DNA of 47,315 bases from the NCBI GenBank assembly GCA_030037885.1, contig JASHPU010000108.1, forward strand, positions 1-47,315, written 5' to 3'. Numbering within the stretch: position 1 is the first letter of the stretch; each line of letters starts with the position of its first letter. The stretch is from Xanthobacteraceae bacterium (GTDB lineage Bacteria; Pseudomonadota; Alphaproteobacteria; Rhizobiales; Xanthobacteraceae). This document shows, piece after piece, positions 11,839-25,119 of the stretch. Both the position numbers and the translations under genes were made by a program. The notes under the pieces are model-generated. The model did not search any database. It was given only the letters and a program-made list of their open reading frames with translations, and was not told the DNA's origin.

Positions 11839-12803
11839 GGTTGTCTCGCTCCGCTGGTGGGTAGGTCAGAGTTCAGGTTTGTGAAGCGCGCATATTCGCC
11901 GGCCCGTACGACGTTCCAGGCGAGGCCGGTTTTCTCCAGCACCGCGACGACCCACCCGCTGATGTCGAGTTGATACCAGCGAAATTGCAGGATCGCCGCG
12001 CTCGGGAAGGCGTGATGGTTATTGTGCCAGGCTTCGCCGAGCGTGAAGACCGAGAGCCAGAGATTGTTGGTGCTCCGGTCTGGAGTCGCAAAGTCGCGCT
12101 GCCCGAAGATGTGGGTGAGGGAGGTGATGCTCCAGATCATATTGTGGCCGGCGTAGATGCGGATCAGGCCACCCCAGGCGAGCCCCTGCGCCGCACCGAT
12201 CCAACCGCCATGCACCATGGCGCCAATCGCCGCGGGAATGGCCAGTCCGACCGCGACCCAGACGAAGTAGAGGTCGTTGACCCGCGAGATGATGCGGTCG
12301 CGTATCAGGTCACGGGCGTAGAAAGCCGTGTTCGGCACCTCGTGCCCGAAGCTCCACGCCATGTACGAATGCCAGAAACCGGCAAGTTTGCCGTGCAGCG
12401 GGGTGCCATTCTCGAGCACGTAGGGCGAATGCGGGTCGCCGGGCTCGTCGGAATGCGCGTGATGGCGGCGATGCAGCGCAACCCAGAACTTGAGCGTGCC
12501 CTGCATGGCCATCGATCCCATGACGGCGAGCGCGACGCGAACTGGCGTCGCAGCCTTGAAGCTGCAGTGGGTGAACATCCGGTGGAACCCCACCGATATG
12601 CCGAGGCCGGCGATGATGAAAAACACGGCGAAGTTCGCCAATTCCGCCCACCCGGGCGGATAGCCGGCGACGGCGAAGCCCACAACCAGTAAGATGCCGG
12701 TCGCGCTCAGCACCACGACGGCGATGGCGTGGCGCTGCTGGACGCGGTGCAGGCGCGGACTTTCGAGCGTACGCGCAATCGCGGGTTTAGAAGTTGCGGA
12801 CAC
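11835..12803 (-). CDS. Membrane fatty-acid desaturase (delta-9 type)
   Basis: 322 aa from the GTG at 12803. The three histidine boxes of the di-iron desaturase family are present: HRMFTH, HRRHH and HNNHH, separated by hydrophobic segments (about four transmembrane helices). It lies between the ligase-desaturase fusion and the ACP gene. GTG 12803 has a GGGAG site 5-6 bp upstream; a longer in-frame TTG start at 12833 would overlap the previous gene by 47 bp. Probably desaturates an ACP- or CoA-bound chain. A JamB-like acetylenase activity is possible but not readable from sequence. Confidence 0.9.
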   Translation of the reverse strand: MSATSKPAIARTLESPRLHRVQQRHAIAVVVLSATGILLVVGFAVAGYPPGWAELANFAVFFIIAGLGISVGFHRMFTHCSFKAATPVRVALAVMGSMAMQGTLKFWVALHRRHHAHSDEPGDPHSPYVLENGTPLHGKLAGFWHSYMAWSFGHEVPNTAFYARDLIRDRIISRVNDLYFVWVAVGLAIPAAIGAMVHGGWIGAAQGLAWGGLIRIYAGHNMIWSITSLTHIFGQRDFATPDRSTNNLWLSVFTLGEAWHNNHHAFPSAAILQFRWYQLDISGWVVAVLEKTGLAWNVVRAGEYARFTNLNSDLPTSGARQP

Positions 12804-15483
12804 TGGGAGCTCCCGACGAAGGCTGCTGGCCAAGGGTGCTCGCGATCCGCTCCACGGAAACGGAACGCACGCCCTTCACCAGCGACAAACGCTCCAGCAA
12901 GCGGATGACGTAGCCGCCGATGTCGATCTGGCTGGCCCTCGTTGCGAAATAGGCCGACGAGGGAAATGCATGGTGGTTGTTGTGCCAAGCCTCGCCCAGC
13001 GTCGGCAATGCGAGCCAGACGTTGTTGCGACTGCTGTCCGGCGTGCGGAACGGCCGTGAGCCGAACATGTGCGTGACCGAGTTGATGGAGCTGGTGGCGT
13101 GGAAGCTGAGGAAGAGGCGCACGAAACCGCCCCACAGCAATCCGTCGATGGCGCCCCGCCAGGATCCGGTAAGCCATCCGCCGAGCACTGCCGGCACCAG
13201 CAAACCCAGAGCGACGACCGCGTAGTAGTGTTGGCTGATGCGCGACACGATGGGGTCGCGGATGAGATCCTTGCAATAGTGCAACGCATTCGACAGTTCG
13301 TGGGTGAACATCCAACCGACGTGCGCATGCCAGAACGCCGCCATGCCGCGCAGCGGCTCGCCATCGTCGAAGACGGGAGAATGCGGATCGCCCGGTGCGT
13401 CGCTGAACTGATGGTGCCGGCGGTGGTTGGCGACCCAATAGATCGGCGAGCCCTGTGCAGCCATCGCGCCCAGCACCACCAGCGCGGCCCGCACTGCCGA
13501 TCGCGCCTCGAAAGCGCGGTGCGAGAGCATGCGATGGTAACCCACCGTGATGCCGAGCATCGTGAGGACATACAGAACGGCCAGCAGCCACAGCGCCGAG
13601 GCGCTCACGCTGCCTTGGATTGCCGCACCGACCGCGGCGATTGCACCGGCAAGGGAGATTGCGGAAATGGTAAAGGCGTGAAGCCGCTGGGCCCAGCGCA
13701 GCCCCTCGCTGGAAACAGTCGGACTACGCAGCTGGCTGATCGTGGCGACGTCGCGGTGGCCGGACGTGCCGTCGTCATCCTTGCGCTTTGCTCGGCTGAC
13801 CAGGGGCAGCGTGCCGTCGATAAACGCCGCGCGGCAGGCGCGCCGCTGGATTTTGCCGCTCGATGTCTTCGGAATGGTGCCGTGCGGGATGAGGGCGAGC
13901 GCATGCAGCCGCACCTGATGGGCGGCCGTGATCGCCTCCACGACGTCGTCGCGTATTTGAGCCTCGTCGAAGCTGTCACGGTATTCGCGGCTCAGCTCCT
14001 GGACCACGACGAGGCGCTCCTCGCCGTCGGCCTCGACGGAAAACGCCGCGCCGCATCCGAGCCGGAGCGCCACATTGCTCGAATAGACCGTGCGCTCGAT
14101 GTCGTCAGGATAGAGGTTGCGGCCGTGAATGATGATGAGATCCTTGAGGCGGCCGGTCAGGTAAAGCCCGCCGTCGTGCATCAGGCCGAGGTCGCCGGTT
14201 CGAAGATAGCTGCCTTCGCCGACGCCATCGAGCGTCTTCACGAAGCTGAGCGCGGTCGCGGCTGGCTGATGCCAGTAGCCCTTCGCGATGCTCCGACCCG
14301 ACAGCCATATTTCTCCCACTTGCCCTTGCGGCAGCGGCACGAGGCGTTCCGGGTCGACGATGAAGATTCGCTGTCCCGACCATTCATGCCCGCAATTCAC
14401 CAGCGCGCGTGCGGTGGGCTCCTCGGAGAGAACGGCGCGGTCGCGTTCCAGCAGGACGCGATCGAAGCGAAGATTGGTTGGCGCGACGGAGTGACCTTGC
14501 CCCGAGACGAAGAGGGTCGCTTCCGCCAGACCGTAACAGGGATACATGGCCTCGCGCCTGAACCCCTGCGGCGCAAAGCACGCGCAGAAGGCGTCAATCA
14601 CTTCCGCCCGCACCGGCTCGGAGCCGTTGAACGCGACCTCCCATCCGCTGAGGTCAAGCGTTTCGCGCTCGGCGGCGGCGATCCGGCGCACGCACAGTTC
14701 GTAGGCGAAGTTGGGGGCACCGCTAAAGGTTGCACGGTAACGATCGATTGCCTGCAGCCACAGGAGTGGACGTTTGAGGAAGCTGGTGGGCGAGAGCAAC
14801 ACGCAAGTGACGCCGAGATACACCGCCTCCAACGCGTTGCCGATCAGACCCATGTCGTGGAACAGCGGCAGCCACGTGACGATTTTGGTGCGCCTCGGGT
14901 CATGACCAAAGGCCTCGGCCATCATTTGCAGGTTGTGTACGAGGTTGCCGTGGCTGACCATCACGCCCTTGGGCTCGCCGGTGGACCCCGACGAATACTG
15001 CAGGTACGCGATTGAATCGGGCGACGGCGCGGGCGGCCGCCACGACGACGACGACGCATCACGCGGGATGTCGGCGACGCGCAGCCAGATCAACGGTCCG
15101 AGGTCCGCAGGCATTGCCCGCAGCGTCGTGTCGCTCACGTCCTCTGTGAGGATCACGCCGGCTCCGCAGCTGGCCACGATGCTCGCCAGCCTGTCGATAT
15201 TTCGCGCGGTGTGGGCGCAAGGCACGCCGATTGCGCCGGCATACAGGCAGCCGAAAAACGCCGCGACAAAGTCGAGCCCGGTAGGAAAGACCAGCAGCAC
15301 GGGCGCGCCGGGCTGCACCATCCCCTGCAAGTGCGTTGCTATCGCGATGGCACGGCGATGCAGTTCACCGAACGTCAGGCGTGCGCACTCCGCTCCACTG
15401 CCGTCGAGCAGGATGTAGGCCGTGTCGTCCCCATGGCTGGCGGCGTGGTCGATAAGTATGTCGACCAGCGTTTCGCCCCGCAT
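12787..15483 (-). CDS. Fatty-acyl-AMP ligase fused to a fatty-acid desaturase
   Basis: 898 aa. Residues 1 to about 575 are an ANL adenylating enzyme of the FAAL group: YSSGSTGEPKGVMVSHGN (phosphate loop), TWLPLFHDMGLIG, YGLAEATLF and the C-terminal SGKIQRR. From about 600 to the end is a complete desaturase with boxes HRMLSH, HRRHH and HNNHH and its own membrane helices. FAALs form acyl-AMP and pass the chain to a carrier protein, here most likely the ACP encoded two genes downstream. The fusion would couple loading with desaturation at the membrane. ATG 15483 is chosen because MRGETLVDILIDHA is the FAAL start and it lies 5 bp after the thioesterase stop; the frame stays open upstream without family similarity. 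Confidence 0.9.
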   Translation of the reverse strand: MRGETLVDILIDHAASHGDDTAYILLDGSGAECARLTFGELHRRAIAIATHLQGMVQPGAPVLLVFPTGLDFVAAFFGCLYAGAIGVPCAHTARNIDRLASIVASCGAGVILTEDVSDTTLRAMPADLGPLIWLRVADIPRDASSSSWRPPAPSPDSIAYLQYSSGSTGEPKGVMVSHGNLVHNLQMMAEAFGHDPRRTKIVTWLPLFHDMGLIGNALEAVYLGVTCVLLSPTSFLKRPLLWLQAIDRYRATFSGAPNFAYELCVRRIAAAERETLDLSGWEVAFNGSEPVRAEVIDAFCACFAPQGFRREAMYPCYGLAEATLFVSGQGHSVAPTNLRFDRVLLERDRAVLSEEPTARALVNCGHEWSGQRIFIVDPERLVPLPQGQVGEIWLSGRSIAKGYWHQPAATALSFVKTLDGVGEGSYLRTGDLGLMHDGGLYLTGRLKDLIIIHGRNLYPDDIERTVYSSNVALRLGCGAAFSVEADGEERLVVVQELSREYRDSFDEAQIRDDVVEAITAAHQVRLHALALIPHGTIPKTSSGKIQRRACRAAFIDGTLPLVSRAKRKDDDGTSGHRDVATISQLRSPTVSSEGLRWAQRLHAFTISAISLAGAIAAVGAAIQGSVSASALWLLAVLYVLTMLGITVGYHRMLSHRAFEARSAVRAALVVLGAMAAQGSPIYWVANHRRHHQFSDAPGDPHSPVFDDGEPLRGMAAFWHAHVGWMFTHELSNALHYCKDLIRDPIVSRISQHYYAVVALGLLVPAVLGGWLTGSWRGAIDGLLWGGFVRLFLSFHATSSINSVTHMFGSRPFRTPDSSRNNVWLALPTLGEAWHNNHHAFPSSAYFATRASQIDIGGYVIRLLERLSLVKGVRSVSVERIASTLGQQPSSGAPSVRNF

Positions 15484-15488
15484 GATAC

Positions 15489-15926
15489 CTACCGCGTGCC
15501 GAGAATGCGGGCGGTCGCCGACGCCGTGGCCACGAGCTGACCGCTTTCGCTCATCAGTGATGCTTCGACGAAGCACACGCCTGCGGCTTGCGAGCGGATC
15601 CGGCCTTCGGCGATAAACTTCCCGGGCTTGCCCGGCCTCATAAAGTTCGACTTGATCTCCATTGTCGGCGCCGTCTGCCCGGGCTCCAGCGCGCACATCA
15701 CCGCAAGGCCCGCGGCGTTGTCCAACATCGCGCACATCATCCCACCCTGCAGCACGCCAGCCGGATTCAGGAATTCCTCGCGCGCCAGCATTTCGCCGCG
15801 GATGAAACCCTTTTCGCTGTCGTATTCGAGGGTCTTCCAACCCAACAGGATCGCCACAGGCGGGTGCGGCGCGCGTCCTTCGTGAATGTCGAGGAACGAC
15901 GGCACCGGCGCAGCATCGCGCGTCAT
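15489..15926 (-). CDS. PaaI-type hotdog thioesterase
   Basis: 145 aa. Hotdog fold with NPAGVLQGGMMCAMLDNAAGLAV, where the usual HGG of PaaI-like acyl-CoA thioesterases reads QGG and the acidic residue D follows, and a strand EIKSNFMRPGKPG. It starts with ATGA overlapping the oxygenase stop. It could release an acyl chain from ACP or CoA. In the isonitrile-lipopeptide pathway a hotdog protein (ScoD/FcoT) encoded next to an Fe/2OG oxygenase instead adds glycine to an enoyl-ACP; the neighbours here allow that idea but the sequence does not prove it. Confidence 0.8.
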   Translation of the reverse strand: MTRDAAPVPSFLDIHEGRAPHPPVAILLGWKTLEYDSEKGFIRGEMLAREEFLNPAGVLQGGMMCAMLDNAAGLAVMCALEPGQTAPTMEIKSNFMRPGKPGKFIAEGRIRSQAAGVCFVEASLMSESGQLVATASATARILGTR

Positions 15927-16804
15927 GGACCAGCGCTCGCGATCCGTTCGCCGGCCAAGGTGGTACGATGCATCACACGCCTTAGAACACCCTCGTCGAA
16001 CGGTTGGGCCCAGTGCATCAGCGAGCGGTTGTCCCACATCAAAACGTCGCCGGGCCACCAGCGATGCTTGTAGAGATATTTGTCTTGCACCGCGAGGTCG
16101 ATCAGTTCACCGAGCAGCATACTGCTGTCGGCGATGCTCATGCCCACGATGTGCGACATGTGGACCGGACTGAGGAACAACGAGCGACGACCCGAAACCG
16201 GGTGCACGCGGACAAGCGGGTGTTCGACGACGGGCACCGCGGCCTTCTCCTCGGCCGAAAGCGGCGTGAGGTTGCCGACAGCGCGGCGCGATACCTCGAA
16301 ATCGTGCACCGCGCGTAGTGGATCCACGCGCTTTCGCATCGCCGCGGGCAGATCTTCATAGACCTGTTCAAGATCGCAGAACCAAGTCTCGCCGCCATGG
16401 CGGGTCAGTTCGATACCGCGAAAGACGGCCCCCTTGCTCGGAATCTCGCGATAGCTGCTGTCGATATGCCATTTCTGCGTCACGTGCAGGTATCGCACCG
16501 TGTTGTGCTCTGCCGGAAGGTGCTGGCCTTGCGTATCGACGTTGGACACGCGGAAAATCTCGTTGTGGGCATCCGAGCGCACCGCCTTCATCGGGAACTC
16601 CTCAAGCGCACCAAAGCGCCTGGTGAACTCGACTTGCTGCGCATCAGAGATGTGCTGGTCGACGAAAATCAAAACCTTGTAGTCGACCCAGGCGTCATGA
16701 ATTGTACGGATCGTCTCGGGGTCGAGCGTATGCGCCAAGTCGATCCCGCGAACTTCGGCGCTCAGATGGTTTCCATAGGGATTTGGCCGAATCTCCAAAG
16801 ACAT
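15923..16804 (-). CDS. TauD/TfdA-family Fe(II)/2-oxoglutarate-dependent oxygenase
   Basis: 293 aa from the ATG at 16804 (MSLEIRPNPYG). The facial triad is H113-x-D115 (KWHIDSSY) and H264 (MHWAQPFD); arginines follow in LRRVMHRTTL (R275, R276, R280) for 2OG and substrate carboxylates. Length fits TauD, TfdA and ScoE/Rv0097 relatives. The frame is open back to 16975 but that extension is AT-rich and unlike the family. First gene of the six-gene lipid operon. Taurine use is unlikely given the neighbours; hydroxylation, desaturation or oxidative decarboxylation of a fatty-acid-derived substrate is more plausible. Confidence 0.85.
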   Translation of the reverse strand: MSLEIRPNPYGNHLSAEVRGIDLAHTLDPETIRTIHDAWVDYKVLIFVDQHISDAQQVEFTRRFGALEEFPMKAVRSDAHNEIFRVSNVDTQGQHLPAEHNTVRYLHVTQKWHIDSSYREIPSKGAVFRGIELTRHGGETWFCDLEQVYEDLPAAMRKRVDPLRAVHDFEVSRRAVGNLTPLSAEEKAAVPVVEHPLVRVHPVSGRRSLFLSPVHMSHIVGMSIADSSMLLGELIDLAVQDKYLYKHRWWPGDVLMWDNRSLMHWAQPFDEGVLRRVMHRTTLAGERIASAGP

Positions 16805-17269
16805 GGCGTACTCCCACACTGACGGGTATTCCACCAAGTCGCAATTAATTAGCAGCACACCGGGCGTCCGACAAGCATAATTTTTAGCTTCTTGAATTAC
16901 AACGCTCGATCGTTCTAACGCTTTGATTGTATTCACGTTAATGCCGCCTGCAAAACTTCGGACGATGCCGATCACTTTGGCTCCTCGCGCAAGCGCGGAT
17001 CACGTATCGCTGGTCACACGATCAACGCCGCGCATGCTTTGAACCGGCGTCTCATGGATCGATCAATCAGATTTGAAATGAAGTTCTTCGCCGACGACCA
17101 ACGACGATAGTGGACGTCCGTCGGGTTGAGACATGACCCACATCGAGTGCTTTGGCCATATTCGCGGCTCGCGCGATCGTGGAGCACATGGCGCCAACGT
17201 CGGTTTGCGAGTACGTTCGTCCTTTGAACGCGTCTCACTATCGGGCTTAGGTGACTGAAGGGGTGCAAT
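16805..17269. other. Divergent intergenic region between the lipid operon and the FMN dehydrogenase
   Basis: 465 bp, with an AT-richer stretch at about 16840-16940 next to the oxygenase start. It must hold the promoter of the six-gene minus-strand operon and that of the plus-strand dehydrogenase. I see no convincing gene, tRNA or strong palindrome. Short open frames here lack ribosome sites. Confidence 0.5.
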
Positions 17270-18415
17270 ATGCGTTTGCGCGACTGTCACAACTTCCATG
17301 ATTTCCGGCGGCTGGCGCTGCGACGTCTGCCAAGACCCATCTTCGACTACATCGACGGAGCTGCCGACGACGAGGCGACCCATCGTCGGAATACGGCAAG
17401 CTTCGAGCGCTGCGACTTGGTGCCCAACGTGCTGCGCGGTGTGGAAGCCGTTGATGTTTCAGTGACCGTCATGGGCCAGAAACTCGCAGTTCCGTTCTAT
17501 TGCTCCCCCACCGCGCTACAACGATTGTTCCATTATAGGGGCGAGCACGCCGTCGCGGCGGCGGCGGCAAAATATGGCACGATGTTTGGCGTATCCTCGC
17601 TGGGCACGGTCAGCCTGGAGGATTTGCGTAAGGCTCACGATACGCCGCAAGTTTATCAGTTCTATTACCACAAGGATCGCGGCCTCAACCGCGCCATGAT
17701 GCAACGCGCAAAAGATGCCGGCGTCGAGATAATGATGCTGACGGTGGACAGCATTACCGGCGGCAATCGCGAACGCGACCTTCGGACCGGGTTTTCCATT
17801 CCATTTAAGCTTACGCCTGGTGCGATGTTTCAATTCGCGATCAAGCCGACGTGGGGCATCGACTACGTCACTCATGAGAGATTCAAACTGCCCCAGCTGG
17901 ACAAACATTTGGACATGGGTGGCGGGCCGATGTCGATCAGCAGGTATTTCACCGAGATGCTGGATCCTTCCATGACTTGGGACGATGTGGCTGAAATGGT
18001 TCAACAATGGAATGGCCAATTCTGTCTCAAGGGTATCATGTCGGTGGCAGATGCCAAACACGCCGCTCAGATAGGTTGCACCGGCATCGTGCTTTCCAAC
18101 CATGGCGGACGGCAGCTTGACGGCTCGCGAGCGCCGTTCGATCAGCTGGCCGAAATCGTGGATTTCGTGGGGGATCGTATCGATGTGATGATGGACGGAG
18201 GAATCCAACGTGGCACCCATGTACTGAAGGCGCTTTCGCTTGGCGCCAAAGCCGTCGGAGTTGGACGCCTCTATCTGTACCCTCTCGCAGCCGCTGGTCA
18301 GGCCGGGGTAGAACGGGCGCTTGGTCTGTTGCGGACAGAGATCGAGCGAGCAATGAAGCTGATGGGTTGCACCGCAATCGCGCAGCTCTCTCGTGACAAT
18401 CTGCGATTCAGATAG
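17270..18415 (+). CDS. FMN-dependent 2-hydroxyacid dehydrogenase/oxidase (LldD family)
   Basis: 381 aa. A full-length TIM-barrel flavoenzyme: the N-terminal FDYIDGAADDE motif, SPTALQRLFHYRGE, and the active-site signature LSNHGGRQLDGSRAP with catalytic His278 and the nearby Arg, then MMDGGIQRGTHVLKAL. Family members oxidise L-lactate, glycolate, mandelate or longer 2-hydroxy acids; MftD in mycofactocin clusters is a peptide-pathway relative. ATG 17270 has an AAGGGG site. It faces away from the lipid operon and precedes the RiPP cassette by 432 bp, so it may be a tailoring enzyme of either pathway; the substrate is unknown. Confidence 0.9.
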   Translation: MRLRDCHNFHDFRRLALRRLPRPIFDYIDGAADDEATHRRNTASFERCDLVPNVLRGVEAVDVSVTVMGQKLAVPFYCSPTALQRLFHYRGEHAVAAAAAKYGTMFGVSSLGTVSLEDLRKAHDTPQVYQFYYHKDRGLNRAMMQRAKDAGVEIMMLTVDSITGGNRERDLRTGFSIPFKLTPGAMFQFAIKPTWGIDYVTHERFKLPQLDKHLDMGGGPMSISRYFTEMLDPSMTWDDVAEMVQQWNGQFCLKGIMSVADAKHAAQIGCTGIVLSNHGGRQLDGSRAPFDQLAEIVDFVGDRIDVMMDGGIQRGTHVLKALSLGAKAVGVGRLYLYPLAAAGQAGVERALGLLRTEIERAMKLMGCTAIAQLSRDNLRFR

Positions 18416-18847: not shown

Positions 18848-19099
18848 ATGGCGGACGTCAAGAAGCTCTCGGTGAAAGAGGCAGCGGCAGCGGCGGCGAG
18901 GTGCGCAGCGACGGCAGCGCAATGCGCGGCGAAAGCCGCCAAATGCGCGGCAACCGCGGCCAGATGCGCAGCTCCTGCAGCAGCCGCCAGATGCGCGGCA
19001 ACTGCCGCGAGATGCGCCGCAACGGCCGCCAGATGCGCCGCGACAGCCGCCAGATGCTCGGCAACCGCGGCCAAGTGCGCGGCAGAGAATCCGGACTGA
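18848..19099 (+). CDS. Putative RiPP precursor peptide with heptad-spaced cysteines
   Basis: 83 aa, preceded by a strong site (AGGGGAGA, 8 bp spacing) that fixes this frame. Residues 1-16 (MADVKKLSVKEAAAAA) look like a short leader. Residues 17-79 repeat a seven-residue unit ARCAATA with variants (Q/K for R, K/P for T). Cysteines are at 19, 26, 33, 40, 49, 56, 63, 70 and 77: exactly seven apart except one 9-residue step at the Pro43 unit. The tail is ENPD. Composition is mostly Ala, Cys, Arg/Lys and Thr. As a helix, the Cys and basic residues would line one side. It sits directly before a DUF692/MNIO gene, the enzyme class that rearranges Cys or C-terminal residues in ribosomal peptides, and other peptide-modification genes follow. 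I do not recognise a named precursor family. The repetitive DNA leaves other frames open, but none has a comparable start. Confidence 0.8.
   Translation: MADVKKLSVKEAAAAAARCAATAAQCAAKAAKCAATAARCAAPAAAARCAATAARCAATAARCAATAARCSATAAKCAAENPD
18896..19084 (+). repeat. 21-bp tandem repeat array inside the precursor gene
   Basis: About nine diverged copies of a 21-bp unit resembling GCCGCCAGATGCGCCGCAAC plus one base, each encoding one ARCAATA heptad. One copy, near residues 41-47, is longer by two codons. Synonymous third-base differences between copies show that selection kept the peptide while the DNA drifted. Confidence 0.85.
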
Positions 19100-19120
19100 A
19101 GGACAAAGACAGCGTAAGAG

Positions 19121-19157
19121 GGCCCGGCGCGCTGCCATGAAGCGGACGTGCCGGGCC
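19121..19157 (+). promoter_or_regulatory. Strong RNA hairpin between precursor and MNIO genes
   Basis: GGCCCGGCGCG (19121-19131) pairs with CGTGCCGGGCC (19147-19157): 11 pairs including one G-U, with a 15-nt loop. It lies in the 75-bp gap after the precursor stop and has no following U-run. In RiPP operons a hairpin here often makes the precursor mRNA more abundant than that of the enzymes, through partial termination or protection from 3' decay; that role is inferred. Confidence 0.6.
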
Positions 19158-19174
19158 AGTACGAGGTACCGCGC

Positions 19175-20095
19175 ATGAGCGTTCCGCACCTCGGCGTCGG
19201 ACTCCAGTTCAACCCGGAACTGATTGGATGGTTTCCCTTCCTTGACCAATCCCTCGATGCGCTGGAGATCCTGTTCGATTCAGTGATGGGGCCTCTTGAC
19301 GGCCCGGCGCTGTTGTCGCCCCGCTCTGTCGATCTCGTGCGCGACATTGCCGACAAATTTTTGCTCATCGGACATTCGAACTACGGCGGAGATTTCGGGT
19401 TCGACGATCTGATGAGCACCGCTGCGGTGCGACGCCACGTTCCGCTTGCCAAGAAAATGAACGTCTCGTGGGTGGCGAACCACTGCTTCTACAGCGATGC
19501 CTCCTGGTCCGACGTTTGGAGCAGCCCGTTACAGTTTTCCAGCGCCGAGGTCGCTCGGGTTGCTGCAAGGGCGCGTGCCCTCCAGGCTCTCTACGGCGTA
19601 CCGCTTGCGCACGAAAACGCCGCCTACTACCGGACCTGTCCCGGCAGCGAAATGCCGGAGGAGGAATTCCTCGCGCAGGTCTTGGAACTGTCCGGGACCT
19701 ATTTGCACCTCGACCTGCACAACTTGTATGCGAATGCGCTGAACCATGGCGCGAACGGCTATTCCATCCGACGCTTTATGGCCACCATACCGCTCGACCG
19801 TGTCATTTCCATTCATATGGCGGGGGGCCGTTGGATCGACGGTCAGTACCACGACCTTCACGACACGCAAGTTGCCGAAGCGGTCTGGGACCTGCTCGAC
19901 GAAGTTCTGTCGCGCGCTCGCCCCGGTGTCGTGATCCTAGAATACGAAACGCAGGCTCTCCACTGCGACGGCGAAACACTCGATACCGACCGCACCACCG
20001 ACTTAATCCTCTCCGACCTCGAACGGGCGCGGAAGGCATGGGATCGCGCTTACGGCCCGGCGAGCCGTCGAACCACGCGCAACGAGGCCGCGTGA
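19175..20095 (+). CDS. DUF692 multinuclear non-heme iron oxidative enzyme (MNIO)
   Basis: 306 aa TIM-barrel. Metal-ligand motifs of the MbnB/TglH (DUF692) family are recognisable in order: GHSNYGGDF, ANHCFYSD, LAHENAAYY, LDLHNLYANALNHG, ISIHMAGG, HDLHDTQV and ILEYETQ, giving the His/Asp/Glu set for a two- or three-iron site. Family members install oxazolone-thioamide, excise Cys beta-carbon or otherwise remodel Cys and Asp residues of precursor peptides. It follows the Cys-repeat peptide after 75 bp and overlaps the partner gene (TGATG). ATG 19175 has GAGG 8 bp upstream; an in-frame GTG at 19148 lies in the hairpin and is less likely. Confidence 0.9.
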   Translation: MSVPHLGVGLQFNPELIGWFPFLDQSLDALEILFDSVMGPLDGPALLSPRSVDLVRDIADKFLLIGHSNYGGDFGFDDLMSTAAVRRHVPLAKKMNVSWVANHCFYSDASWSDVWSSPLQFSSAEVARVAARARALQALYGVPLAHENAAYYRTCPGSEMPEEEFLAQVLELSGTYLHLDLHNLYANALNHGANGYSIRRFMATIPLDRVISIHMAGGRWIDGQYHDLHDTQVAEAVWDLLDEVLSRARPGVVILEYETQALHCDGETLDTDRTTDLILSDLERARKAWDRAYGPASRRTTRNEAA

Positions 20096-21057
20096 TGGAT
20101 GCGCGCTTGGTGTGGGACACATGGCGGCGCGTTCTGACCAGCGATGATCTCGTCGAGTGGGTCATGAAACCCGATTGCCGAGCAGAGGCTCCAAACGGCC
20201 TCTCCCCGGACGAGATTGCGATCCTGGCCGACTACGCGGGCACGCCCGCGGCGACCGATTCCAACATCGGCATGTACCGGCGCGGACTGGTCAGGAATGC
20301 ATTGGGCGCGTTGGACCTCGTGCCGCTTACCCGCCGCCTGTTAAACGCGAGTGGACTAGACATCGAAGCGGTCGCGACGGAGTTTGCGCGGTCCGCGGGA
20401 TATGCCGACAACGGACCTAATTTCTGGTCGACCGCAGCTGGTTTTGTTGCATACCTGACGGGCCTCCAGGAATTCGCTTCACGCGCGCAGCAAGACGTAC
20501 TGGCGCTCGACGCGGCGACGATTGCGCTTGCCCGCCGCCTCGGTGAGTGCGCGGCTGCGGTGTGGCCGGACAGCGCGGCCACCGCCTTCTCGGTTGCGGG
20601 CTCACGTGCGCACCGGGAATCAACCCGCTTTGTCGCCAATCGGGCCGCGGTCGTCGTTTCATCATCCTGCGATCTTACGGCTTGGATTGAAAATCCGTTC
20701 AACTTCGATGCCGGCGAGGAGTTGGAACTTTCGCCGCGACATTGGCTGGTCTACTTTCCAGCAGCCGAGGCCGCGCACGAATACGCGGAACTGTCCGGGC
20801 GAAGCGCCCGCACCTTCGATCTTCTTTGGACTTCAAAGACCACAGCGGAGTTATCGCTGGCGTTAGGCGGTCTTCCGCGGGCGGATGTGCTTGCGGTGAT
20901 CGACTCGCTCGCAGAGCTCGGCGTCATAGTCGGCGAGGCTGACCTGCTCAGCTTGACCCCTCCGGCGCGATTGCATCAGGGGTGCGGTGATCAATCCACA
21001 GGCACTCTTCATCCGACTCGCGCCGGAGCAGCGAGGCAAGCCCATGAGAGCACATGA
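20095..21057 (+). CDS. Probable MNIO partner protein with C-terminal winged helix (RiPP recognition type)
   Basis: 320 aa, not assignable to a named family with certainty. The N-terminal two thirds are helical (VWDTWRRVLTSDDLVEWV; VLALDAATIALARRLGE). Residues about 240-295 (SGRSARTFDLLWTSKTTAEL ... VIDSLAELGVIVG) look like a winged helix. MNIO enzymes usually act with an adjacent partner (MbnC, TglI) that binds the leader through such a fold. The coupled TGATG start with the MNIO gene supports a complex. The stop lies 14 nt inside the next gene. Function as leader-peptide binding partner is inferred from position and fold pattern. Confidence 0.6.
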   Translation: MDARLVWDTWRRVLTSDDLVEWVMKPDCRAEAPNGLSPDEIAILADYAGTPAATDSNIGMYRRGLVRNALGALDLVPLTRRLLNASGLDIEAVATEFARSAGYADNGPNFWSTAAGFVAYLTGLQEFASRAQQDVLALDAATIALARRLGECAAAVWPDSAATAFSVAGSRAHRESTRFVANRAAVVVSSSCDLTAWIENPFNFDAGEELELSPRHWLVYFPAAEAAHEYAELSGRSARTFDLLWTSKTTAELSLALGGLPRADVLAVIDSLAELGVIVGEADLLSLTPPARLHQGCGDQSTGTLHPTRAGAARQAHEST

Positions 21058-22819
21058 GCAAGGTCGACCGTCCGACCTACACAGCCTTGTTGGCAGACTG
21101 CCCAACGACGCGTTTGTCATGCTTGACCCGGCAGTTGAAGTCCTGGAGCCCGAGATCGCCGAACATCGATTGCTGGGTCACGGCTATTTTGAAGTCGGCA
21201 TGGTCGTGCCGCCGGGTGAAGGCCTGTTGGCGTTCGTGACCGCACTCGGCCAACAGCCGGTCAATCTTGGCACCCTGCGCGCGCAATTCGACGATCAGCA
21301 GATTATCGACAAGATGCTCGCTTCCCTGCGCCAGCACGGATTCATGCACGTCACGTCGCCGACGAAGCCGTCTACCGAAGAGCTCGCACGTTTTCGAGCG
21401 ATAGCCGAGCAAAGGCGCAGAGAAACGTTACGCCGTTCACTCGTCATCGACCTGGATGCGCCAATTTCAATTGATGATCTCCGCGTCCGCTTGAGCGCGG
21501 AAGTCTCAGCACCAGAAGTGCGGTTGCGTTGTGCGCGATTAGTAGACCACAAGAGAATATTGGCCGAACTGGCGTGTCTGCGGCAAGCCGGCGCGGTGCG
21601 GATGCATCACACCGTGGTGCAAACGAACGACCTCTCAGCCGATCGCGAACTCTGCCGATCGCTCATCCGCTTGGGAGCGTCGGTCCACCTCGAAGCAGTG
21701 CCTTGGCCGGCACCCGATCGTCCCATTCCCGGGCTTGATGAAATGACCCGGAATTGCGTCGCCGTGCATGTGCTAATGACACCGGGCCTATCGATCCTCG
21801 ACGATGCCGTACGCCACCGAGCCCTGACCTGGGCGGGGTCGGTATTTATCTCCGGCCTGTGTTTAAGACTTGAACCAGAGGCTCTCTGGCCGGCGGGGAA
21901 TGCTCGAGAGGATGATTTCATCGACCTCTTCAATGCGGTACGTGCGATCGAGAACGAGTTCGGAGACGTTCTAATCGTCAACCTGCCGAGCGACGAGGTG
22001 TTGCTTGGCAATACGGCATCGTCTTCATCTCCCGACCGGCTGTCCGATTTTGCCAACAGTTTTCGCACATCGTACATGCGGTGGCGCCTCCCCGTGTTGA
22101 AGTCCTGTGAAAACGACAACAGCTGGAGCCAAATACCCGAAGTCGAGGACAAGCTGGTCCGCGCTCGAGAAGACCTGTTGCCTAATCATCCGGAACTGCT
22201 GTCGCTCAGGCCCGGCAGCGTCGTGGTGGATGTTTGCGGCGGCTTGGGACGCGTGGCGCGGCGATTGTCGCCAGTGGTTGGTGAAGAAGGACTCATCATT
22301 TCGATCGAGATGTTCCGCTGTCTGAGCGATCGGGCACGCCGGTTTGCCTGCGAAAGAAACTTCATGAACCTGCATTTCCGCCCCGGACTGGCGCAGCGCA
22401 TTCCGCTGCCCGACGCAATGGCGGATGCGGCCGTCAACGAGTGGACCGGAGGCGTCTGGGAACTGGGGCTTGGACCGGCCATGGTCCGGGAAATGGCCAG
22501 AGTGGTTCGCCCCGGCGGCCGCATTGCGGTCACCCATCGGCTGGTGCGGCTTCATCTCGCGTCGTTGGCGCAGCCCTGGGTTCAGTACGAAGAAATCTAC
22601 AGGTGGATGCGTGAAGCCTTCGTGCATCCGCAATTGACCATCATCGCAGAACGCGTATGGGGTCAAATCGCGCCGTCGCTGGTGGGCGACAATGCCACGT
22701 TTTGGCGCAGGCAGTATATGCCGCGCCTGGTCAATCCCTACGACGTAACATACAAATCTGACGACAGTCCGGGTACGCAAGCTGACGTCTATTTGACGCT
22801 CATCGCGCAACGGCAGTGA
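21044..22819 (+). CDS. Winged-helix/PqqD-like domain fused to a class I SAM methyltransferase
   Basis: 591 aa from ATG 21044 (GAGG 7 bp upstream); a GTG at 20987 would add 19 residues. Residues about 20-105 (FVMLDPAVEVLEPEIAEH ... MLASLRQHGFMHV) look like a PqqD/RRE-type winged helix for leader binding. Residues about 120-345 are unassigned; the layout hints at a TIM-barrel like that of radical SAM peptide enzymes, but the CxxxCxxC motif is absent. From about 370 on is a UbiE-like methyltransferase: VVVDVCGGLGRVARRL (motif I, residue ~393), PDAMADAAVNEW and MARVVRPGGRIAVTHR. Probably methylates or scaffolds the modified precursor. Not a known family architecture to me. Confidence 0.65.
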   Translation: MRAHEQGRPSDLHSLVGRLPNDAFVMLDPAVEVLEPEIAEHRLLGHGYFEVGMVVPPGEGLLAFVTALGQQPVNLGTLRAQFDDQQIIDKMLASLRQHGFMHVTSPTKPSTEELARFRAIAEQRRRETLRRSLVIDLDAPISIDDLRVRLSAEVSAPEVRLRCARLVDHKRILAELACLRQAGAVRMHHTVVQTNDLSADRELCRSLIRLGASVHLEAVPWPAPDRPIPGLDEMTRNCVAVHVLMTPGLSILDDAVRHRALTWAGSVFISGLCLRLEPEALWPAGNAREDDFIDLFNAVRAIENEFGDVLIVNLPSDEVLLGNTASSSSPDRLSDFANSFRTSYMRWRLPVLKSCENDNSWSQIPEVEDKLVRAREDLLPNHPELLSLRPGSVVVDVCGGLGRVARRLSPVVGEEGLIISIEMFRCLSDRARRFACERNFMNLHFRPGLAQRIPLPDAMADAAVNEWTGGVWELGLGPAMVREMARVVRPGGRIAVTHRLVRLHLASLAQPWVQYEEIYRWMREAFVHPQLTIIAERVWGQIAPSLVGDNATFWRRQYMPRLVNPYDVTYKSDDSPGTQADVYLTLIAQRQ

Positions 22820-22852
22820 TGCTCTCAAGAGTTGCTTCAAGCGTGACGTACG

Positions 22853-24352
22853 ATGATGCGATCGCAGCAAACCGCCTTTGACGACGCCCACTCGTCGCTG
22901 CGTCGGCTCGGAATTCCGGCCGCCCTGGCGGCGGTTCACGCCGCGGGAATAAGCATCAGCCACGCGGTTCTTGGCGGATCCCATTCAGTGGCGATCTATC
23001 CTCCCGTCGATTCCCTGATGCCGCTTGATCCGTGCGGCGTGGTCGAGGCGGTTGACTGGGGCAGAGAGGCAAGTCTGTACGTCCACATCGCGTTTTGTGA
23101 AACGCGTTGTACCTTCTGCCACTACGCGGTCGATCACTACGCCGGCAGGACAAAAGGCTCCGCCGCGGATGATGACAGAGCCGCTCGCTATCTGGCCGCG
23201 CTGAAGCGGGAACTGGTGCTTTGGGGCGGAAGGTTGGCCAGATCCGGGACTGTGGTGTCGTCGGTCTATATCGGAGGAGGTACACCTCTGGTTCTTGAAG
23301 AGGCCGCGCTGCGGGATCTCATCTGCACTATCCGGGATGAGTATGACGTCCTGTCCGGCGCGGAGGTCTGCATCGAAGGCAGTCCCCTCACGATTACCGC
23401 GCCCGGTGGTGAGGACAAGCTGCGGTCTGTCAAGGAGCAGGGCGTCACCCGCCTGAGCTTCGGGGTGCAGTCCTTCGACGACAGCGTGCTCAAATACGCA
23501 GCTCGCGGCTACAAGAGCGACCTCGCTATTCGTGCATGCTCGATTGCAAACCAAGTCTTTGACAACTGGAATCTCGACCTGATTCAGGGGCTCTACAAAG
23601 GGTCGCCATCCGAAGTGTGGCACAATCTCGCGATGCTCAACGAGATACGCCCGGCGCACATCACCTGGTACCATGGCCGGTTCGCGGATCGGCCCCAGGG
23701 ACACTGGTACAATATGGAATCCAAGCATGCGAGTTTCGAGGATGAGTTCGCGACACTCCTTGGGCGTATGCTGATGTGGCAGGAAATGGCCTCGCTCGGG
23801 TACCATCAAGTCGACGGCAATCGATTCGTGCGCTCGCGTCGATACATCGATCCTTTCAAAAAAATTCGCACATCGGCCTCAAGCCAGCTTCTTGGAGTCG
23901 GCGCGGCGTCGTATTCGCATGTCGCCAGCCGTCCTGCAAAAAGGAACAGTCGCGGCTACGTTTTGCGCAATGAGCGGAACATCGGCGCTTACGTGGATTC
24001 TGTCTTGGCAGGCAACATCCCGATCACCACGGGACGTATCATCGACGATGAGGAATTGCTGGCCATGTCCTACGCCACAGGGCTTCGCACCGGGCGCGTC
24101 GAAGACGAAGACCTGCGTTCCATAGGGATCGAAAATCCTCAGCTTCGCCGGCACTATGACGCACTGGTCAAAGAGCTGAGCAATGCCGGCGCGCTGGAAG
24201 CCTATCTCGATAATGACGGCAAAGCAGGATTGCAGCTTTCCGAGCTAGGCAGACTTTTCGAAGACGAAACGCTGGCGCTGTTCTTCAGTCCCGCGGTCAA
24301 GAATGCGCTGGCGGGGAAAGCATCAATCGGACGCGAGCTACACTACGCGTAA
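22853..24352 (+). CDS. HemN/HemW-like radical SAM enzyme
   Basis: 499 aa. CETRCTFC (C82, C86, C89) is the CxxxCxxC site for the [4Fe-4S] cluster; YIGGGTP and LSFGVQSFDD are HemN/HemW signatures, and a HemN-C-like region follows (LGVGAASYSHVA to about residue 480). The residue after the cluster motif is His. Relatives outside haem metabolism include methyltransferases (NosN-type) and cyclopropanases (C10P/Jaw5-type). Its place between two methyltransferase genes in a peptide cassette argues against coproporphyrinogen oxidase or haem chaperone duty. The start is the first of two adjacent ATGs, 33 bp after the previous stop; the ribosome site is poor. Confidence 0.85.
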   Translation: MMRSQQTAFDDAHSSLRRLGIPAALAAVHAAGISISHAVLGGSHSVAIYPPVDSLMPLDPCGVVEAVDWGREASLYVHIAFCETRCTFCHYAVDHYAGRTKGSAADDDRAARYLAALKRELVLWGGRLARSGTVVSSVYIGGGTPLVLEEAALRDLICTIRDEYDVLSGAEVCIEGSPLTITAPGGEDKLRSVKEQGVTRLSFGVQSFDDSVLKYAARGYKSDLAIRACSIANQVFDNWNLDLIQGLYKGSPSEVWHNLAMLNEIRPAHITWYHGRFADRPQGHWYNMESKHASFEDEFATLLGRMLMWQEMASLGYHQVDGNRFVRSRRYIDPFKKIRTSASSQLLGVGAASYSHVASRPAKRNSRGYVLRNERNIGAYVDSVLAGNIPITTGRIIDDEELLAMSYATGLRTGRVEDEDLRSIGIENPQLRRHYDALVKELSNAGALEAYLDNDGKAGLQLSELGRLFEDETLALFFSPAVKNALAGKASIGRELHYA

Positions 24353-24372
24353 CCGGGAAAGTGGAGGGCTCC

Positions 24373-25119
24373 ATGGACATTTCGGAGCGGACGATACCTC
24401 CGGGGCAGGACGGCGCTGCCGGTGACGGCATTCATGCCGCACGTGCCGGCTGGAGCTTCGGTGGCGAAACCCCCCAACGCTTCGATCGCCACATCGGGCG
24501 CTCCGTTCCCAACTATGAAGCTGGTCACACACTGATCGAGCAGGTGAGCGACTTTTTCGTGAGAAGTGACTCGATCGCCTACGAGATCGGAACTTCAACC
24601 GGCACTCTCTTGCGGCGGTTGGCGAAGCGTCATCCTCACGGAACGTGCTGGATCGGAATCGACGTGGAGCGCGCAATGATCGAACACGCGCGTGCCGTAA
24701 ACAGCCAAACGTCGCTGAATGTGGAATACTTGCTTGCAGACGCGTGTGATGTAGACTACGAAGCGAGCGACTTCATCGTGTCATATTATACGGTTCAGTT
24801 CGTTCCCCCCAGACGTCGGCAGAATCTAATCGATTTAATCTATAAGTCGCTCAATTGGGGCGGCGCGTTCGTGTTGTTCGAAAAAGTCAGGGCGCCCGAC
24901 GCGCGGTTCCAGGACATGATGAGCACCTTATATGTCGACTACAAATTGGAAAATGGCTACTCCCCGCAAGAAATTCTCGGGAAGGCGAGCAGTCTGAAAG
25001 GCGTCCTTGAGCCGTTTTCAACAAAAGGCAATCTCGACATGCTGCACCGCGCCGGCTTCGTGGACGTCATGACCATATACAAGCATGTTTGTTTTGAGGG
25101 ATTCTTGGCCATAAAGTAG
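24373..25119 (+). CDS. CmoA-like SAM-dependent methyltransferase (Cx-SAM-binding Arg absent)
   Basis: 248 aa. It aligns end to end with E. coli CmoA (247 aa): FDRHIGRSVPNYE, motif I YEIGTSTGTLLRRL, VQFVPPRRRQNLIDLIYKSL, LNWGGAFVLFEK and LENGYSPQEI. In E. coli, Arg199 (in QKRS) holds the carboxylate of carboxy-SAM; the aligned position here is Ala (GKAS). So this protein may use ordinary SAM rather than make carboxy-SAM. It lies 20 bp after the radical SAM gene, and a GGAGGG site precedes ATG 24373. The HemN-like plus methyltransferase pairing recalls the two-component cyclopropanase C10P/C10Q. Last gene of the cassette. Confidence 0.75.
   Translation: MDISERTIPPGQDGAAGDGIHAARAGWSFGGETPQRFDRHIGRSVPNYEAGHTLIEQVSDFFVRSDSIAYEIGTSTGTLLRRLAKRHPHGTCWIGIDVERAMIEHARAVNSQTSLNVEYLLADACDVDYEASDFIVSYYTVQFVPPRRRQNLIDLIYKSLNWGGAFVLFEKVRAPDARFQDMMSTLYVDYKLENGYSPQEILGKASSLKGVLEPFSTKGNLDMLHRAGFVDVMTIYKHVCFEGFLAIK

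What the first reader, a model, noticed from the sequence alone, without database searches (positions are those of the whole stretch)
18848..25119. Putative new RiPP system: heptad-cysteine peptide with MNIO, winged-helix partners, radical SAM and two methyltransferases
Seen: a small Ala-rich ORF with nine Cys spaced by seven, a strong ribosome site, then a DUF692 gene, a coupled partner, a winged-helix/methyltransferase fusion, a HemN-like radical SAM gene and a CmoA-like gene, all on one strand and mostly overlapping or close. Known: DUF692/MNIO enzymes modify Cys or Asp in ribosomal peptides with a partner and a short precursor encoded beside them. Inference: this is a RiPP pathway whose product would be a helical peptide modified at each heptad Cys. 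The combination of MNIO, PqqD-like/MTase fusion and HemN-like enzyme is not one I recognise.
Basis: partly seen in the sequence, partly recalled or inferred. Interest (0 to 1): 0.95.

Follow-up and report, generated by a model that had tools for sequence, protein, structure and literature searches.

The report
Peptide with cysteine every seventh residue
A bacterial gene cluster encodes a small alanine-rich peptide with a cysteine at almost every seventh residue, beside five conserved enzyme-like genes; it is likely an undescribed ribosomal natural-product pathway in which those cysteines would lose a carbon inside the peptide chain and then be capped.

Summary
The 83-residue ORF (18848-19099) has nine Cys spaced 7,7,7,9,7,7,7,7. 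It is followed by an MNIO, a partner, a three-domain protein, a HemN-like radical SAM gene and a CmoA-like gene.

A 14th, L003, has the five enzyme genes but is cut off before the peptide gene. The peptide changes mostly at third codon positions.

MNIO and partner are relatives of TglH/TglI, which cut the beta-carbon out of a C-terminal Cys in 3-thiaglutamate biosynthesis; the TglH-specific catalytic Asn73 is kept. This is not a pearlin: the PEARL ligase was not found in any of 10 genomes searched, and the MNIOs form a sister clade.

Best explanation, untested: TglHI-type beta-carbon excision at many gene-encoded, in-chain Cys, then S-alkylation and radical SAM tailoring. What caps the thiols is open: the window's genome lacks TglF, and its CmoA-like protein lacks the Cx-SAM arginine.

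The "winged-helix/MTase" protein is predicted to be an RRE, a radical-SAM-type barrel without cluster cysteines, and a methyltransferase.

The parts
18848..19099 (+). precursor peptide, 83 aa: leader MADVKKLSVKEA, then Ala-rich core with nine Cys (spacing 7,7,7,9,7,7,7,7), repeat consensus [KR]CAA[TN]AA
   Evidence: leader and heptads at 13 of 13 loci with upstream DNA
19121..19157 (+). RNA hairpin between precursor and MNIO gene, without a T run; may protect the precursor mRNA or lower read-through (inferred)
   Evidence: z -4.1 in the window, -3.0 L004, -2.5 L005, -3.9 L006; z between -0.6 and 0.9 in the other six loci folded (L007-L012)
19175..20095 (+). MNIO (DUF692/PF05114), TglH relative; iron-site residues and Asn73 equivalent (N69) present
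20095..21057 (+). TglI-like partner protein of the MNIO
   Evidence: 8hci_C E 6.7e-12; NF058584 62 bits, below the curated 450; no Pfam family
21044..22819 (+). 591-aa protein: predicted RRE (about 22-105), radical-SAM-type TIM barrel without CX3CX2C (about 129-330), class I methyltransferase (about 352-591)
   Evidence: fused to a TglI-like partner in 36 of 120 listed homologues
22853..24352 (+). HemN-like radical SAM enzyme, nearest solved structures NocN and HemN
   Evidence: YxHxxxCX3CX2C in 12 of 12 rows aligned
24361..25119 (+). CmoA/TglE-like protein; no basic residue at the position equivalent to CmoA Arg199 or at the next one
   Evidence: TIGR00740 134 bits, cut-off 193

Best explanation
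This locus encodes a ribosomal peptide with nine near-regular heptad cysteines beside a TglH/TglI-type oxidase pair that is predicted to excise the beta-carbon of those in-chain cysteines, leaving alpha-thiol residues that the neighbouring methyltransferase and radical SAM enzymes would likely cap and elaborate. Shown by sequence: the conserved six-gene set, the TglH-type active-site residues, the constant leader with a variable number of Cys heptads, and no PEARL found in the genomes searched. Inferred: the leader is bound by the RREs of the partner and of the three-domain protein; the MNIO acts on the Cys in turn, releasing formate and giving 2-mercaptoglycine residues; the methyltransferase domain (nearest to the TmoS family in a profile comparison) S-alkylates the thiols; and the HemN-like enzyme, like class C methylases, adds or removes carbon on the new side chains. 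In the Sphingomonas version (L011), which keeps TglE- and TglF-type genes, the cap is more likely carboxymethyl, giving in-chain 3-thiaglutamate. The product would be an Ala-rich helix with thia-residues in a stripe.
For: Six-gene set at the window, L004-L012, L039, L040 and L041 (13 of 13 with upstream DNA; L003 has the five enzyme genes but its contig starts 91 nt before the MNIO). MNIO's closest solved relative is TglH (8hci/8hi7/8hi8), E 8.7e-114. Asn73 and the eight iron-site residues named in the TglH passages are invariant in 32 of 32 MNIOs aligned; Asn73 is reported essential and confined to TglH and its orthologues (PMC10880893 passages). Partner matches TglI. Nearest known cousins TglH and TmoH both excise Cys C-beta (PMC9016710 passages, PMC9303977 discussion). 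L011 keeps both TglE and TglF types. Methyltransferase domain against the TmoS family: hhalign probability 97. rSAM resembles NocN and HemN. Partner and three-domain protein are fused in 36 of 120 listed homologues.
Against: TglHI acts on a C-terminal Cys, and Lys in the place of the preceding Ala stopped modification (PMC9016710 passages). Here Cys are internal and the preceding residue is Lys/Arg at 70 of 87 Cys, so the substrate pocket must differ; 14 positions separate the two MNIO clades. The heptad clade is sister to, not inside, the clade with known chemistry. A TglF-type gene was found in 1 of 11 genomes, and the window's CmoA-like protein has Ala/Ser where CmoA has Arg199 and where 17 of 17 PEARL-locus homologues have a basic residue one place on. 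TmoS and TglF are generic methyltransferase folds that also match each other (probability 95), so one search is weak. No expression or mass data.
Confidence: 0.58

Rival explanations
1. The MNIO pair converts the heptad Cys into metal-binding heterocycles (oxazolone/thioamide or 5-thiooxazole), and the peptide is a metallophore or metal buffer like bufferins, oxazolins and methanobactins.
For: Most described MNIO precursors carry Cys motifs, and the largest families bind copper (PMC12452194). A stripe of modified Cys suits metal binding.
Against: Active-site residues are TglH-like, with Asn73. Partner is TglI-like with no DUF2063 or MbnC Pfam match. No signal peptide is evident by eye (no predictor run). 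The MTase, rSAM and CmoA-like genes are not explained. The gene maps show no further gene family at three or more of the ten heptad loci mapped other than a cupin.
Confidence: 0.17
2. The heptad peptide is a gene-encoded multi-site carrier: each Cys is turned into a 3-thia amino acid that is later released by proteolysis, a PEARL-free counterpart of pearlins giving many product molecules per peptide.
For: TglH/TglI/TglE kinship. Cys number varies from 6 to 10 while the leader is constant, as for a multi-copy substrate.
Against: No TglG-type protease at the loci, and in ten genomes one match only, at 25% identity (E 1.9e-15). In-chain residues would need two cuts each.
Confidence: 0.15
3. The CmoA-like protein makes carboxy-SAM and all heptad Cys become in-chain 3-thiaglutamate, in the window as well as in L011, with the methyltransferase domain of the 591-aa protein replacing TglF.
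For: 57-62% identity to the CmoA-like proteins of the six PEARL loci aligned. L010 and L011 keep the basic residue next to the Arg199 column. TglE is reported as a carboxy-SAM synthase (PMC10491745 passages).
Against: 12 of 14 heptad loci, the window included, have Ser, Asn or Ala there against Arg/Lys at 17 of 17 PEARL loci with the gene. Methyltransferase domain against TglF: hhalign probability 1.7.
Confidence: 0.25
4. The ORF is a chance reading frame in 21-bp repeats and not a gene.
For: Low-complexity 21-bp repeat array.
Against: Same frame, leader and position at 13 of 13 loci, third-codon-position bias, ribosome site; annotated as a protein for B. stagnalis (WP_059881569.1).
Confidence: 0.01

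Closest known systems
tgl pathway of 3-thiaglutamate (pearlin; Pseudomonas syringae TglA-I)
   Same: MNIO 53-58% identical across L013-L033, with the same iron-site residues and Asn73; TglI-like partner; TglE/CmoA-like gene; in L011 also a TglF-type gene
   Different: No PEARL found (0 of 10 genomes), no TglF in the window's genome, no TglG-type protease at the locus; Cys are gene-encoded, many and in-chain; extra HemN-like rSAM and RRE/barrel/MTase protein
tmo pathway of 3-thiahomoleucine (Tistrella mobilis)
   Same: MNIO/partner plus a methyltransferase and a radical SAM enzyme that build the S-side chain; MNIO 53-57% identical (PMC9303977)
   [quoted passage not shown] here a HemN-like enzyme and no PEARL
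Class C radical SAM methylases (NocN/NosN, C10P with C10Q)
   Same: HemN-type family, YxHxxxCX3CX2C, beside a methyltransferase gene as C10P/C10Q work together
   Different: No aromatic or olefinic target is evident in this peptide; substrate unknown
Bufferins, oxazolins and methanobactins (MNIO RiPPs)
   Same: PF05114 enzyme and a Cys-repeat precursor beside it
   Different: TglI-like rather than DUF2063/MbnC partner, TglH-type active site, three SAM-type tailoring genes
TigE and SuiB/CteB radical SAM RiPP maturases
   Different: CX3CX2C is missing in 57 of 57 rows aligned and in 120 of 120 listed homologues, and a methyltransferase domain follows

Membership tests
MNIO (DUF692, PF05114) | Pfam PF05114 above its gathering score | tested here: met
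   132 bits against 25
MNIO (DUF692, PF05114) | multi-iron ligand set | tested here: met
   equivalents of the TglH residues named in the passages read (H107, E151, D184, N187, H216, D229, H231, E258) invariant in 32 of 32 rows
TglH-type beta-carbon excising MNIO | Asn73, reported as specific to TglH and its orthologues and essential | tested here: met
   N69 in the window, 32 of 32 rows; paper passage
TglH-type beta-carbon excising MNIO | excision of Cys C-beta as formate | not testable with these tools
   needs an enzyme assay
Pearlin (PEARL-dependent) pathway | PEARL (TglB-type) gene | tested here: not met
   0 of 10 heptad genomes including the window's; found in the control genome of L015. 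A homologue (BLAST cluster c5) is at 21 of 21 loci L013-L033; 5 of 6 of these scanned hit Lant_dehydr_N, L028 none
Pearlin (PEARL-dependent) pathway | scaffold peptide to which the modified residue is added at the C-terminus | tested here: not met
   Cys are encoded inside the precursor, with residues after the last Cys in 12 of 12 distinct precursors
Pearlin (PEARL-dependent) pathway | TglG-type releasing protease | tested here: not met
   9 of 10 heptad genomes, the window's included, no match; 1 (that of L012) has a match at 25% identity away from the locus
TglI partner | NF058584 above curated cut-off (450 bits) | tested here: not met
   62 bits, E 4.9e-17: homologous but outside the equivalog
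CmoA/TglE carboxy-SAM synthase | TIGR00740 above cut-off (193.3 bits) | tested here: not met
   134 bits; the TglE of a tgl locus (L015) also scores only 134
CmoA/TglE carboxy-SAM synthase | arginine (CmoA Arg199) binding the carboxylate | tested here: not met
   Ala209/Ser210 in the window; at 210 a basic residue at 17 of 17 PEARL loci with the gene and 2 of 14 heptad loci (L010, L011); column 209 itself is Ala/Ser/Thr everywhere
HemN-like / class C radical SAM | CX3CX2C with the SAM-II-stacking Tyr six residues before it | tested here: met
   12 of 12 rows; role of the Tyr from PMC12871812 passages
HemN-like / class C radical SAM | two SAM bound, methylase activity | not testable with these tools
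   needs protein
Bufferin/oxazolin | DUF2063-type partner | tested here: not met
   no Pfam family in the partner
Bufferin/oxazolin | Sec signal peptide on the precursor | not tested
   no predictor on hand; none evident by eye in MADVKKLSVKEA...
RiPP (general) | short precursor with constant leader and variable core beside RRE-bearing modifying enzymes | tested here: met
   (RRE by predicted fold and by TglI homology)

The most novel reading that the evidence does not exclude
A new RiPP class in which an Ala-rich helix is studded, every seventh residue, with in-chain 3-thia amino acids made by excising the beta-carbon of six to ten gene-encoded cysteines per peptide: thiaglutamate-type chemistry freed from the PEARL carrier and spread along a whole helix. 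A radical-SAM-shaped barrel that has lost its iron-sulfur cluster would serve as a docking platform joining the leader-binding domain to a methyltransferase.
Probability: 0.42. Interest if true: 0.87.

Novelty: new variant of a known kind. Interest (0 to 1): 0.76.

Why it matters
In the papers read, TglHI-type excision is described only on a C-terminal cysteine that a tRNA-dependent ligase adds. If the same excision runs on many encoded, internal cysteines, a peptide backbone could be edited by writing Cys heptads, and thia-residues would be reachable for peptide engineering. It also gives a direct test of how MNIOs choose C-terminal or internal Cys: two sister clades, 14 separating positions, and opposite preferences for the residue before the Cys. 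The RRE/clusterless-barrel/methyltransferase architecture was not met in our literature searches.

Tried and rejected
Considered and dropped: the FMN-dependent dehydrogenase at 17270-18415 as part of the system (no homologue at L004-L033 or L039-L041; L003 has no DNA there). Canonical carboxy-SAM route in the window (no TglF in its genome, Arg199 equivalent missing), kept only as a rival. Chance ORF. Pearlin membership.
Full report
WHAT IS THERE. The ORF at 18848-19099 codes for 83 residues, 42 of them Ala, with nine Cys spaced 7,7,7,9,7,7,7,7. Random placement of nine Cys never gave seven spacings of seven in 300,000 trials. Five genes follow on the same strand: MNIO 19175-20095, partner 20095-21057, a 591-aa protein 21044-22819, a HemN-like radical SAM gene 22853-24352, and a CmoA-like gene 24361-25119, with overlaps of 1 and 14 nt and gaps of 33 and 8 nt. 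Between precursor and MNIO lies an RNA hairpin (19121-19157). Strong hairpins with other letters sit there in L004-L006 as well (z -4.1, -3.0, -2.5, -3.9), but not in the other six loci folded.

IT IS CONSERVED AS A UNIT. A scan of one genome per species with the MNIO gave 31 loci. Ten of them (L003-L012; MNIO 72-99% identical) carry all five enzyme genes. L003 starts 91 nt before its MNIO, so its precursor cannot be seen; the other nine have a heptad-Cys ORF 50-86 nt before the MNIO. The L039 peptide equals that of L009, which leaves 12 distinct precursors with 87 Cys; 60 of 75 spacings are 7, ten are 16, three are 9 and two are 6. All share a leader of the form D(V/I)(K/T)(K/H)L(S/A)(V/I) (the motif also used to pick the start codon), and the core repeats [KR]CAA[TN]AA; the residue before Cys is Lys or Arg at 70 of 87. 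Changes fall mainly at third codon positions (window against L004: 11, 9, 46). The two Cys blocks are separated by 9 or 16 residues; on an ideal helix both steps turn the stripe by about half a circle, so the blocks could face each other in a hairpin (inference).

IT IS RARE AND PATCHY. The rSAM gene at E <= 1e-100 was found in 4 of 391 genomes drawn from the window's family (its own included; none of the 19 same-genus genomes listed), 4 of 398 of the family of L009 (three of them the genomes of L008, L009 and L012) and 1 of 298 of the family of L011 (its own); at E <= 1e-40, 3 of 398 in the phylum sample: the window's own and two distant relatives (32-33%) without an MNIO match in the 19 kb around them. 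The 591-aa protein has 230 homologues among the candidates scored (a capped list of 7993); the best 120 listed are 57-99% identical. Patchiness suggests horizontal spread (inference).

THE MNIO IS A TglH RELATIVE. The nearest solved protein is TglH (8hci, 8hi7, 8hi8; E 8.7e-114), the partner's nearest is TglI (E 6.7e-12). The eight iron-site residues named in the passages read, and Asn73, are invariant in 32 of 32 MNIOs aligned. Asn73 is reported to be needed for catalysis and to occur only in TglH and its orthologues, not in MbnB (PMC10880893, passages read). On a tree the 11 heptad MNIOs form one clade (100/100) opposite 21 MNIOs of PEARL-bearing loci, which include the T. mobilis tmo locus and a P. 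haemolytica tgl locus whose TglI passes its curated cut-off. TglHI and TmoHI both excise the beta-carbon of a C-terminal Cys (PMC9016710 passages; PMC9303977 abstract and discussion). Because the heptad clade is their sister, the shared chemistry is likely but not proven.

BUT IT IS NOT A PEARLIN. A PEARL-type gene (BLAST cluster c5, about 800 aa, next to TglI) is at 21 of 21 L013-L033 loci; five of six scanned match the lantibiotic dehydratase family, L028 does not. It is in none of ten heptad genomes, with the L015 genome as positive control. The TglG-type protease gave one match (25% identity, E 1.9e-15, genome of L012) in ten genomes. The TglF-type gene is in L011 only (1 of 11 genomes; the next best match is 28% identical over 30-220, E 1.2e-14, in the genome of L010), whereas the 17 L013-L033 loci with a CmoA-like gene all have it. 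TglHI acts on a C-terminal Cys, and Lys before it stopped modification (PMC9016710 passages); here Cys are internal and mostly follow Lys/Arg. Fourteen positions separate the clades (one residue in 11 of 11 heptad rows, another in at least 19 of 21 PEARL-locus rows; 11 of the 14 are fixed in both; start Met and a gap column left out). Among them are Ser to Arg219, Trp to Leu228, Gln to Glu258 and His to Leu262, close in sequence to iron-site residues. Glu258 could meet the basic residue before Cys (inference).

WHAT CAPS THE THIOL. The CmoA-like protein is 57-62% identical to those of six PEARL loci aligned. TglE is reported to make carboxy-SAM and TglF to transfer it (PMC10491745 passages). 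CmoA binds the carboxylate by Arg199 (PMC3663124 passages). At that column all 16 rows aligned have Ala, Ser or Thr; one residue on, 17 of 17 PEARL loci with the gene have Arg or Lys, as have heptad loci L010 and L011, but the other 12 of 14 heptad loci, the window included, have Ser, Asn or Ala. So carboxy-SAM is plausible in L010/L011 and doubtful in the window. The methyltransferase domain of the 591-aa protein compares best with the TmoS family (hhalign probability 97; CmoA-like 18; TglF 1.7), but TglF and TmoS also match each other (95), so this is weak. TmoS S-methylates the same kind of thiol (PMC9303977).

THE RADICAL SAM ENZYME. Best solved matches are NocN and HemN. YxHxxxCX3CX2C is in 12 of 12 rows; that Tyr stacks on the second SAM in NocN and HemN (PMC12871812 passages). 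A HemN-like enzyme working with a methyltransferase is known (C10P/C10Q, PMC6050322 abstract). Its substrate here is unknown.

LITERATURE. Searches over openly licensed PMC papers listed no description of this cluster. The MNIO landscape paper (PMC12452194; abstract, two sections and passages read) lists precursor families of other lengths and motifs and does not use the words Bradyrhizobium or Burkholderia in its main text. Its supplements, and subscription papers, were not seen; the original report of the tgl pathway was not read. The mass signatures of rival rings, and the general view of RiPP logic, are recalled.

VERDICT. A real, apparently undescribed RiPP-type cluster, most likely doing TglHI-type chemistry on encoded in-chain cysteines. 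The biochemistry is inferred throughout.

Noticed in passing
window 12787-16975, - strand: AMP-binding/fatty-acid desaturase fusion, 4HBT thioesterase and TauD-type dioxygenase in a row: looks like a small fatty-acyl tailoring cluster beside the RiPP locus.
   Followed up: no
window 17270-18415, + strand: FMN-dependent dehydrogenase (292 bits to L-lactate dehydrogenase, 269 to mycofactocin MftD, both under cut-off), directly upstream but with no homologue at the other loci that have DNA there.
   Followed up: partly
L008 15919-16401 (-), L009 15888-16313 (-), L010 16201-16584 (+), L011 9021-9359 (-), L039 10563-10892 (-), L013 7762-8100 (+); also L027, L031, L033 near 14270-14610 (+): A DHCW-motif cupin gene lies beside heptad-Cys loci L008-L011 (and L039) and PEARL loci L013, L027, L031, L033: a shared accessory gene of unknown role.
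   Followed up: partly
L011 6275-7300: An iron-containing heme-oxygenase-like protein (PF14518) sits directly before the CmoA-like gene of the Sphingomonas cluster.
   Followed up: no
L003: A contig whose enzymes are 99-100% identical to the window's is binned in a Candidatus Binataceae MAG: misbinning or very recent transfer.
   Followed up: no
G000:C271:9542-10231: A second, distant MNIO (27% identity) in the window's genome with an in-frame TGA.
   Followed up: no
L037 6845-9817, L038 7461-10467: Distant relatives of the rSAM enzyme (32-33%) each follow an unassigned gene of about 510 aa without Pfam match: perhaps another two-gene HemN-like system.
   Followed up: partly
window 18848-19099 and relatives: Precursors have two Cys blocks split by a step of 9 or 16 residues, which turns the Cys stripe by about half a circle on an ideal helix.
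   Followed up: no
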